NCBI GenBank assembly: GCA_031258055.1
Contig: JAIRNM010000329.1
Coordinates: 1-5,119, forward strand
Length of the DNA stretch: 5,119 bases
Reading direction: 5' to 3'
Source of the DNA: Bifidobacteriaceae bacterium
Lineage (GTDB): Bacteria > Actinomycetota > Actinomycetes > Actinomycetales > WQXJ01
Position 1 is the first letter of the stretch. Every line of letters begins with the position of its first letter. The notes below the pieces were generated by a model. The model had not been told where the DNA came from, did not search any database, and worked only from the letters and a program-made list of their open reading frames with translations. The translations under genes and the position numbers were made by a program. Shown piece by piece: positions 4,105 to 5,119 of the stretch.

Positions 4105-4116
4105 TGGGCGGACAAA

Positions 4117-4150
4117 TCCTTTAAGGCCCGTCCAGTGAGGCGGGAAAGGA
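4117..4150 (+). promoter_or_regulatory. Predicted PyrR-binding RNA hairpin that masks the carB ribosome binding site
   Basis: The leader RNA can fold as follows. A lower stem pairs 4117-4122 (UCCUUU) with 4145-4150 (AAAGGA). A purine bulge, AAGG, lies at 4123-4126. An upper stem pairs 4127-4132 with 4139-4144 (five Watson-Crick pairs and one U-G). The hexaloop CAGUGA is 4133-4138. The core 4129-4142, CGUCCAGUGAGGCG, matches the PyrR binding consensus ARUCCNGNGAGGYU, except that the outer A-U is replaced by a compensatory C-G. Established knowledge: PyrR with bound UMP stabilises such stem-loops, which have an upper stem, a conserved loop, a purine-rich bulge and a lower stem. In mycobacteria the site lies near the ribosome binding site and acts on translation. 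Inference: high UMP keeps the Shine-Dalgarno paired and lowers CarB synthesis. No terminator-like run of U follows, which also argues against an attenuation mechanism. Confidence 0.8.
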
Positions 4151-4152
4151 GG
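4145..4152 (+). promoter_or_regulatory. Strong Shine-Dalgarno of carB, inside a predicted hairpin
   Basis: AAAGGAGG ends four bases before the carB ATG and is a near-perfect anti-Shine-Dalgarno match, which settles the start codon. Its first six bases (4145-4150) are exactly complementary to TCCTTT at 4117-4122, so the site can be masked in the folded leader. Confidence 0.9.
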
Positions 4153-4156
4153 CACA

Positions 4157-5119
4157 ATGCCTAAGAGACGCGATCTCAAATCCGTCATGGTGATCGGGTC
4201 GGGGCCAATCGTGATTGGCCAGGCCTGCGAATTCGACTATTCCGGCACCCAAGCCTGCCGCGTCCTGAGAGACGAAGGCTTACGGGTGGTGCTGGTCAAC
4301 TCGAACCCAGCCACCATCATGACGGACCCGGAGTTTGCCCACGCCACCTATATAGAGCCCATTGAGCTAGAGGCGCTCACGGCCATCATTGAGCGGGAGC
4401 GCCCGGACGCTCTGTTGCCTACTTTGGGTGGACAGACCGCGCTGAACGCGGCGGTGGAACTGGCTGAGGCGGGTGTCCTAGAGCGCTACAAGGTCGAACT
4501 GATCGGTGCCAAAATCGAATCAATCCGGGCCGGTGAGGACCGCCAGGAATTCAAGGGTGTGGTGGAACGGGCGGGAGCGGAAGTGGCCCGGAGCCGAATC
4601 GCCCACTCAATGCCGGAATGCTTGGCAGCGGCCGACGAACTGGGCTATCCGCTGGTGGTCCGGCCGTCGTTCACAATGGGCGGCTTAGGCTCCGGCATTG
4701 CCTACGGGCCGGAGGATCTGGACCGGATTGCCGGGGCGGGGCTCCAATACAGCCCGACAGCGGAAGTGCTGCTCGAAGAATCAGTCATCGGCTGGAAAGA
4801 GTTCGAGCTTGAAATCATGCGCGACAAGGCTGACAACGTTGTGGTTGTCTGCTCCATTGAAAACCTCGACCCGATGGGCGTCCACACCGGCGATTCGGTG
4901 ACCGTCGCGCCCGCCCTGACCCTGACAGACCGTGAGTATCAGCGCCTGCGTGACATTGGAATCGCGGTGATCCGGGAGGTCGGTGTGGACACAGGAGGCT
5001 GTAACATCCAGTTCGCCGTGAACCCGGTTGATGGCCGAGTCATCGTAATCGAAATGAATCCGCGGGTTTCACGTTCTTCAGCCCTGGCTTCGAAAGCGAC
5101 AGGATTTCCGATCGCGAAG
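4157..5119 (+). CDS. carB: Carbamoyl-phosphate synthase large subunit, N-terminal 321 residues (3' end outside window)
   Basis: CarB makes carbamoyl phosphate from bicarbonate, ATP and ammonia supplied by the glutaminase subunit CarA, feeding pyrimidine and arginine synthesis in the cytoplasm. The visible part covers the pre-ATP-grasp domain (about 1-125, with GSGPIVIGQACEFDYSGTQA) and most of the first ATP-grasp domain, which phosphorylates bicarbonate. The numbering coincides with E. coli CarB, so the known ATP-site residues can be read directly: R129, R169, G175, G176, E208, E215, H243, Q285, E299, N301 and R303 are all present. Both CPSase signatures are seen: YPLVVRPSFTMGGLG at 164-178 and VIEMNPRV at 297-304. 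The family is usually about 1070-1120 residues, so about 70% lies beyond the edge. The start is supported by a strong AAAGGAGG placed four bases before ATG. No carA lies directly upstream; the neighbour is divergent. A PyrR-type RNA hairpin in the leader suggests pyrimidine control. Confidence 0.98.
   Translation, partial: MPKRRDLKSVMVIGSGPIVIGQACEFDYSGTQACRVLRDEGLRVVLVNSNPATIMTDPEFAHATYIEPIELEALTAIIERERPDALLPTLGGQTALNAAVELAEAGVLERYKVELIGAKIESIRAGEDRQEFKGVVERAGAEVARSRIAHSMPECLAAADELGYPLVVRPSFTMGGLGSGIAYGPEDLDRIAGAGLQYSPTAEVLLEESVIGWKEFELEIMRDKADNVVVVCSIENLDPMGVHTGDSVTVAPALTLTDREYQRLRDIGIAVIREVGVDTGGCNIQFAVNPVDGRVIVIEMNPRVSRSSALASKATGFPIAK

What the first reader, a model, noticed from the sequence alone, without database searches (positions are those of the whole stretch)
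4111..4159. PyrR-type RNA switch overlapping the carB Shine-Dalgarno
Seen: a two-part hairpin whose upper stem and loop match the PyrR-binding consensus ARUCCNGNGAGGYU, with a C-G pair replacing the outer A-U. It has a four-purine bulge and a six-base-pair lower stem that hides AAAGGA of the ribosome site. Known: PyrR-UMP binds such hairpins and controls pyr genes by attenuation or, in mycobacteria, by translational repression. Inferred: carB is individually controlled by UMP at translation, from a leader that seems to consist of almost nothing but this hairpin.
Basis: partly seen in the sequence, partly recalled or inferred. Interest (0 to 1): 0.8.

Follow-up and report, generated by a model that had tools for sequence, protein, structure and literature searches.

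The report
Second PyrR hairpin guards split-off carB
In a family of actinobacteria whose pyrimidine operon is split before carB, the separated carB carries the same regulatory RNA hairpin as the operon's first gene, so the protein PyrR with UMP likely still turns down both halves of one enzyme together by blocking their translation.

Summary
The hairpin is real. The 34-base element at 4117-4150 has the PyrR-type stem and loop, a purine bulge, and a lower stem that pairs with the carB Shine-Dalgarno. Rfam's PyrR model is its best match (E 0.0058), below the curated cut-off because the attenuator half is missing. A model built from the family's carB hairpins finds two strong sites in this genome: this one and one before pyrR.

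In the window's family (18 genomes) the operon is split into pyrR-B-C-carA and carB-pyrF, and both parts carry the hairpin over the ribosome site: 14 of 15 assessable carB starts, and a pyrR-type site in 17 of 18 genomes. Elsewhere in the order the hairpin stands 3.6-4.9 kb before carB in 34 of 34 measurable genomes. A second hairpin at a detached carB was also found in genome G610, whose four examined sisters have an unbroken operon without it, and in Segniliparus rugosus.

Across the phylum 6 of 12 pairs show two-sided changes; a -10-like box often lies about 20 bases upstream; no terminator was found. PyrR-UMP translational repression of the mycobacterial type is the likely mechanism; binding and repression are untested. 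New member of a known kind; the recurrence at split-off carB genes is the notable part.

The parts
4099..4104 (+). putative -10 box TAGGCT; predicted transcript start near 4111
   Evidence: TANNNT lies 14-24 bases before the lower-stem arm in 46 of 66 leaders against 1.6% of random 16-base stretches; the sigma-70 consensus scan found no full promoter in 4013-4400
4117..4122 (+). lower stem, 5' arm UCCUUU, which pairs with the Shine-Dalgarno
4123..4126 (+). purine bulge AAGG
4127..4132 (+). upper stem, 5' arm CCCGUC
4133..4138 (+). hexaloop CAGUGA (CNGNGA in relatives)
4139..4144 (+). upper stem, 3' arm GGCGGG
4145..4152 (+). carB Shine-Dalgarno AAAGGAGG; its first six bases (4145-4150) are the lower stem's 3' arm
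4157..5119 (+). carB, first 321 codons (runs off the contig)
   Evidence: 71-93% identical over residues 1-321 to carB of most relatives; open frame
2..4012 (-). divergent gene for an SCO7613 C-terminal-domain membrane protein (runs off the contig); a relative lies between carA and carB in G013
   Evidence: NF047321 80.4 bits, cut-off 45; context

Best explanation
A PyrR-type hairpin like the one in front of pyrR in the same genome lies over the carB ribosome-binding site, and PyrR carrying UMP likely clamps it and blocks carB translation. Shown by sequence and comparison: the hairpin, its overlap with the Shine-Dalgarno, its twin before pyrR, its conservation in the family, and the split of the operon before carB. 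Predicted: transcription starts just before the hairpin, and the leader folds as drawn. By calculation the lower stem adds about 3.7 kcal/mol to an upper stem of -9.9, so a ribosome could plausibly open it when PyrR is absent but not when PyrR holds stem, bulge and loop. Inferred from the mycobacterial system: UMP promotes binding, and ample UMP would lower translation of both pyrR-B-C-carA and carB-pyrF, keeping CarA and CarB in step although they come from two transcripts.
For: Rfam PyrR best match in the window. Own genome: two strong R1 sites, 66.9 and 57.6 bits, next 13.7, the other before pyrR-pyrB-pyrC. Family: 31 strong sites in 18 genomes, 14 before carB (of 15 carB starts with upstream sequence) and 17 before pyrR, then a gap from E 2.7e-7 to 0.086. 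Covariation over 86 matches (83 distinct): 96% of cells paired, 6 of 12 pairs with two-sided changes in 32 cells, 0 of 500 shuffles as high; slid versions 59-68% paired with at most 2 such cells. -10-like box upstream. Energies -13.6 whole and -9.9 upper stem. No terminator-like site in 4013-4400. Detached carB with its own hairpin also in G610 and Segniliparus rugosus.
Against: No binding or expression data. Rfam's gathering score is not met. Within the 14 carB hairpins there is no two-sided change, and RNAalifold on the wide alignment calls only five upper-stem pairs; that alignment was fitted to the model, and the shuffle control does not correct for relatedness. By calculation the Shine-Dalgarno is paired with the 5' arm at P over 0.5 in 11 of 14 carB leaders, not in G007, G015 and G017. 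G010 carB has no hairpin in its 108 upstream bases. In 6 of 14 family carB leaders the TANNNT box is not in the 14-24 band.
Confidence: 0.85

Rival explanations
1. The carB hairpin is a PyrR site that works by transcription attenuation, as in Bacillus and Lactococcus: PyrR-UMP binding would favour a terminator.
For: The Rfam family it matches is of that type; PyrR acts on terminators in Lactococcus cremoris, where carB is also a separate unit (passages of PMC10986495).
Against: Only 6 bases lie between hairpin and ATG; no terminator-like site was found in 4013-4400; the lower stem's 3' arm is the Shine-Dalgarno itself.
Confidence: 0.04
2. The carB hairpin is a copied leader kept for its promoter and Shine-Dalgarno; PyrR no longer regulates it to any useful degree.
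For: Promoter, hairpin and Shine-Dalgarno overlap, so copying one brings the others; the 14 hairpins are too alike to show selection on pairing.
Against: Loop CNGNGA and the upper stem, which a promoter or Shine-Dalgarno does not need, are invariant or nearly so in 14 carB leaders at N positions aside; in G610 the U-A pair typical of its sisters is kept in both copies.
Confidence: 0.06
3. Another RNA-binding protein, RNA decay or temperature, not PyrR, acts through this hairpin.
For: No call excludes it.
Against: The conserved letters fit the PyrR model, and the twin site stands before pyrR itself.
Confidence: 0.05

Closest known systems
PyrR-dependent translational repression in Mycobacterium smegmatis (Fields and Switzer 2007, J Bacteriol 189:6236; not held; seen only as a title in the reference lists of PMC10672894, PMC6455119 and PMC13328217)
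   Same: Same regulator gene present; the hairpin stands over the first ribosome site of a pyr unit. A mycobacterium-like genome of the phylum sample (G382) has the same hairpin before a PyrR that scores 313 bits against PDB chain 5iao_A (that this chain is mycobacterial is recalled).
   Different: There (as recalled) one site controls one operon at its first gene; here a second site controls a separated carB.
PyrR control of separate pyr units, carB among them, in Lactococcus (passages of PMC10986495; a PyrR attenuator at L. lactis carB itself is recalled)
   Same: carB is its own unit and belongs to a PyrR-controlled pathway.
   Different: Lactococcus uses terminators; here the site covers the Shine-Dalgarno and no terminator was found.
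Rfam RF00515, PyrR binding site
   Same: The binding half (upper stem, loop, lower stem) aligns throughout.
   Different: The antiterminator and terminator half is absent; 0 of 59 genomes searched reach the gathering score.

Membership tests
PyrR translational operator of actinobacteria | PyrR-type upper stem and CNGNGA hexaloop | tested here: met
PyrR translational operator of actinobacteria | stems supported by two-sided changes in relatives | tested here: met
   6 of 12 pairs, 4 in the upper and 2 in the lower stem; not visible within the 14 carB hairpins, lower stem not called by RNAalifold
PyrR translational operator of actinobacteria | lower stem covers the Shine-Dalgarno of the next gene | tested here: met
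   computed pairing with the arm at P over 0.5 in 11 of 14 family carB leaders, the window's at 0.98
PyrR translational operator of actinobacteria | pyrR in the same genome | tested here: met
   NF003549 217 bits and NF003547 268 bits, both over cut-off
PyrR translational operator of actinobacteria | hairpin lies within the transcript | tested here: inconclusive
   -10-like box 4099-4104 predicts a start near 4111; no RNA data
PyrR translational operator of actinobacteria | UMP-stimulated PyrR binding and repression of translation | not testable with these tools
   needs binding, toeprint and reporter tests
Rfam RF00515 as curated (site plus attenuator) | score at or above the gathering score of 54 bits | tested here: not met
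   39.3 bits
Rfam RF00515 as curated (site plus attenuator) | terminator between site and gene | tested here: not met
   6 bases between hairpin and ATG; no terminator-like site in 4013-4400

The most novel reading that the evidence does not exclude
In actinobacteria the pyrR promoter, hairpin and Shine-Dalgarno act as a portable translational operator: in three lineages (the window's family, G610, Segniliparus) the pyr operon has broken between carA and carB and the cut-off carB has gained a copy of the cell's own pyrR leader, so that an operon break is repaired at the RNA level and CarA and CarB stay matched to UMP.
Probability: 0.5. Interest if true: 0.65.

Novelty: new member of a known kind. 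Interest (0 to 1): 0.5.

Why it matters
If true, it is a natural experiment, seen in three lineages, in how bacteria keep two subunits of one enzyme co-regulated after their operon breaks: the detached gene acquires the RNA switch. It offers a PyrR operator with almost no other leader sequence, suited to testing how PyrR blocks ribosomes. It also shows that Rfam's PyrR model at its curated cut-off passes over this class in all 59 relatives searched, although a model of the binding half alone matches 193 of 346 sampled genomes of the phylum.

Tried and rejected
Literature: searches listed no title that deals with a PyrR hairpin at an actinobacterial carB; only listings (at most 20 papers a search) were seen, of open-licence papers, so this is no claim about print at large. 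Passages (not whole papers) were read in PMC3766115, PMC10986495, PMC10672894, PMC6455119, PMC3781837 and PMC13328217.

Rejected as evidence: folding energy of the short piece; RF00515 hits at E up to 10, since 8 of 14 control genomes also ring.

Against a strict rule that every detached carB has a hairpin: G010 carB lacks it; Pseudonocardia ammonioxydans has 0.9 kb between carA and carB and no hairpin at carB; in the actinobacterial MAG of L043 no R1 match better than E 0.175 was found although pyrR is present. In a Propionibacteriaceae MAG the only R1 match stands before carA-carB, and none before pyrR. Of 44 actinobacterial loci in the carB set L009-L053 (L049 is not actinobacterial), 42 have carA within 160 bases of carB; the two others are Segniliparus and Pseudonocardia.

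Pattern searches for hairpin plus carB start: order 16 of 396, of which 14 are the family's carB sites, one is G610 and one G567, where the R1 site lies elsewhere and no pyr gene was found round the pattern match; phylum 4 of 396, the window plus G371, G396 and G163, which were not followed up. The pattern fixes part of the carB start and can miss others. Genomes with more than one R1 match besides G000: G216, G394, G094, G153, G158, G257, G323. In one search G158 and G323 showed no hairpin at carB; for G094 only the pyrR site was seen; G257's stretch held no pyr gene; G216, G394 and G153 were not looked at.

Rows dropped: one search gave 68 sites; G050 had no locus, so searches used 67; G052 has no CCTT arm and drops out (66 left). 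One search was given 100 of the loci held then; two of its 86 matches are one site held in two loci (L107 and L149). In one search distances use the low coordinate of each hairpin and are rough to about 0.15 kb. One requested sister, G492, was searched with R1 (one site) but its operon was not looked at.

Full report
What is in the sequence. At 4117-4150 lies a two-part hairpin: lower stem UCCUUU/AAAGGA, a four-base purine bulge, a six-pair upper stem and the hexaloop CAGUGA. The lower stem's 3' arm is the first six bases of the Shine-Dalgarno AAAGGAGG, and carB starts at 4157. The RNA folds this way on its own. Rfam's PyrR family is the top match of the window, 39.3 bits, E 0.0058; its binding half aligns throughout and its attenuator half runs into carB with many broken pairs. 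A pattern of the fixed letters occurs once, and in 0 of 200 shuffles.

Own genome. The window is one whole contig of a 2.39-Mb assembly, 77% complete. R1, a model built from the family's 14 carB hairpins, finds two strong sites in it: this one, which is in the model, at 66.9 bits, and one at 57.6 bits, which is not; the next scores 13.7. The second site is directly before pyrR, followed by pyrB and pyrC. No third strong site was found; at 77% completeness that is not a full survey.

Family. All 18 held genomes of the family were searched with R1: 31 matches at E 2.7e-7 or better, then none until E 0.086. Fourteen are before carB and 17 before pyrR. Fifteen genomes have a carB start with upstream sequence on the contig: 14 carry the hairpin, G010 (108 bases upstream) does not; G008 lacks the start of carB, and G011 and G016 gave no carB match. 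The operon is split: carA follows pyrC in 11 of 11 genomes whose stretch runs past pyrC, pyrF follows carB in 11 of 11 whose stretch runs past carB, and in 13 of 13 with about 1 kb or more upstream of carB no carA stands directly before it. In G013 the two halves still lie side by side, with an SCO7613-type membrane protein gene on the opposite strand between them. A relative of that gene lies on the opposite strand upstream of carB in 7 of the 15 genomes, the window included.

Order. In the 40 sampled genomes outside the family with a carB match, 34 have hairpin and carB on one contig, and in 34 of 34 they are 3.6-4.9 kb apart, as in an unbroken operon led by pyrR; two have them on different contigs and four have no hairpin match.

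Recurrence. A search for hairpin followed by a carB start matched 16 of 396 genomes of the order: the 14 above, G610, and G567, judged chance. G610 has two R1 sites; five others of its genus have one each. In the four of these that were examined (G466, G629, G692, G560) 20-104 bases separate the carA and carB matches and no hairpin stands there; in G610 4.3 kb with an ABC transporter gene separate them, and carB has its own TAGTCT box and hairpin. Both G610 hairpins have the U-A pair (CCUGUCC/GGCAGG) of the sisters' pyrR hairpins, which suggests a copy of a resident leader. Segniliparus rugosus ATCC BAA-974, met through the carB search, has one hairpin before pyrR and one before carB, 9.3 kb apart, with about 4.6 kb of other genes between carA and the second hairpin; its two leaders are also identical for nine bases directly upstream of the hairpin. 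A Propionibacteriaceae MAG has its only hairpin before carA-carB. Exceptions are told under Tried and rejected. In the window's family carB hairpins differ from each other by 4.3 of 34 positions on average and from the pyrR hairpin of their own genome by 5.5 (14 genomes), which fits one old copying event rather than many.

Covariation. The 14 carB hairpins alone are nearly invariant and show no two-sided change. Over 86 matches (83 distinct) from 100 loci, 96% of cells pair, 6 of 12 pairs have two-sided changes in 32 cells, none of 500 shuffles is as high, and slid versions fall to 59-68% paired with at most 2 such cells. The outermost lower pair is U-A in 49, C-G in 9 and U-G in 8 sequences, and unpaired in 17, so the 5' arm partly follows the Shine-Dalgarno. 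RNAalifold on the same alignment calls only five pairs of the upper stem, the alignment was fitted to the model, and the shuffles ignore relatedness; the lower stem is the weaker claim.

Transcript start. A TANNNT box lies 14-24 bases before the lower-stem arm in 46 of 66 leaders (8 of 14 family carB, 9 of 17 family pyrR, 29 of 35 others) against 1.6% of random stretches. In the window it is TAGGCT at 4099-4104; the predicted start near 4111 would leave a leader of little more than the hairpin. No full sigma-70 match and no terminator-like site was found in 4013-4400.

Mechanism. Computed energies are -13.6 kcal/mol for the whole hairpin and -9.9 for the upper part, so the pairing that hides the Shine-Dalgarno is worth about 3.7. 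The proposed switch: PyrR with UMP holds stem, bulge and loop and so keeps the lower stem closed; without it ribosomes can open it. PyrR of this genome matches solved PyrR chains over nearly its whole length, and RIAH and VDRGHRELP are invariant in five PyrRs aligned; that such segments touch RNA is recalled, not tested.

Known context. PyrR translational repression in M. smegmatis is known to me by title and recall (paper not held). In Lactococcus cremoris carB is a separate unit and PyrR acts on terminators (passages). The hairpin is therefore a new member of a known kind. Less expected is that a second copy is found at carB genes cut off from their operon in more than one lineage. R1 matched 193 of 346 sampled genomes of the phylum at E 0.1 or better, eight of them more than once, while 0 of 59 relatives reach Rfam's cut-off.

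Noticed in passing
window 2608-2671: A perfect 64-base palindrome (two 32-base arms, no spacer) inside the SCO7613-type gene; its arm was found in no other of the 287 loci fetched except copies of the window. Origin unknown; assembly artefact not excluded.
   Followed up: partly
window 2-4012, minus strand; L149 4311-8690; L153, L187, L221, L222, L224: An SCO7613-type membrane protein gene on the other strand lies upstream of the detached carB in 7 of 15 genomes and may mark the insert that split the operon.
   Followed up: partly
Rfam RF00515: The curated PyrR model reaches its gathering score in 0 of 59 genomes of the order although PyrR-type hairpins stand before pyrR in most of them; a model of the binding half alone would catch them.
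   Followed up: partly
L283 and L286 (uncultured Propionibacteriaceae MAG): The only PyrR-type hairpin of this genome stands before carA-carB; none was found before its unlinked pyrR-pyrB-pyrC.
   Followed up: partly
L228 1-108: In G010 carB has no hairpin but keeps a TCCGTTAAGC stretch upstream that may be a remnant of the 5' arm.
   Followed up: no
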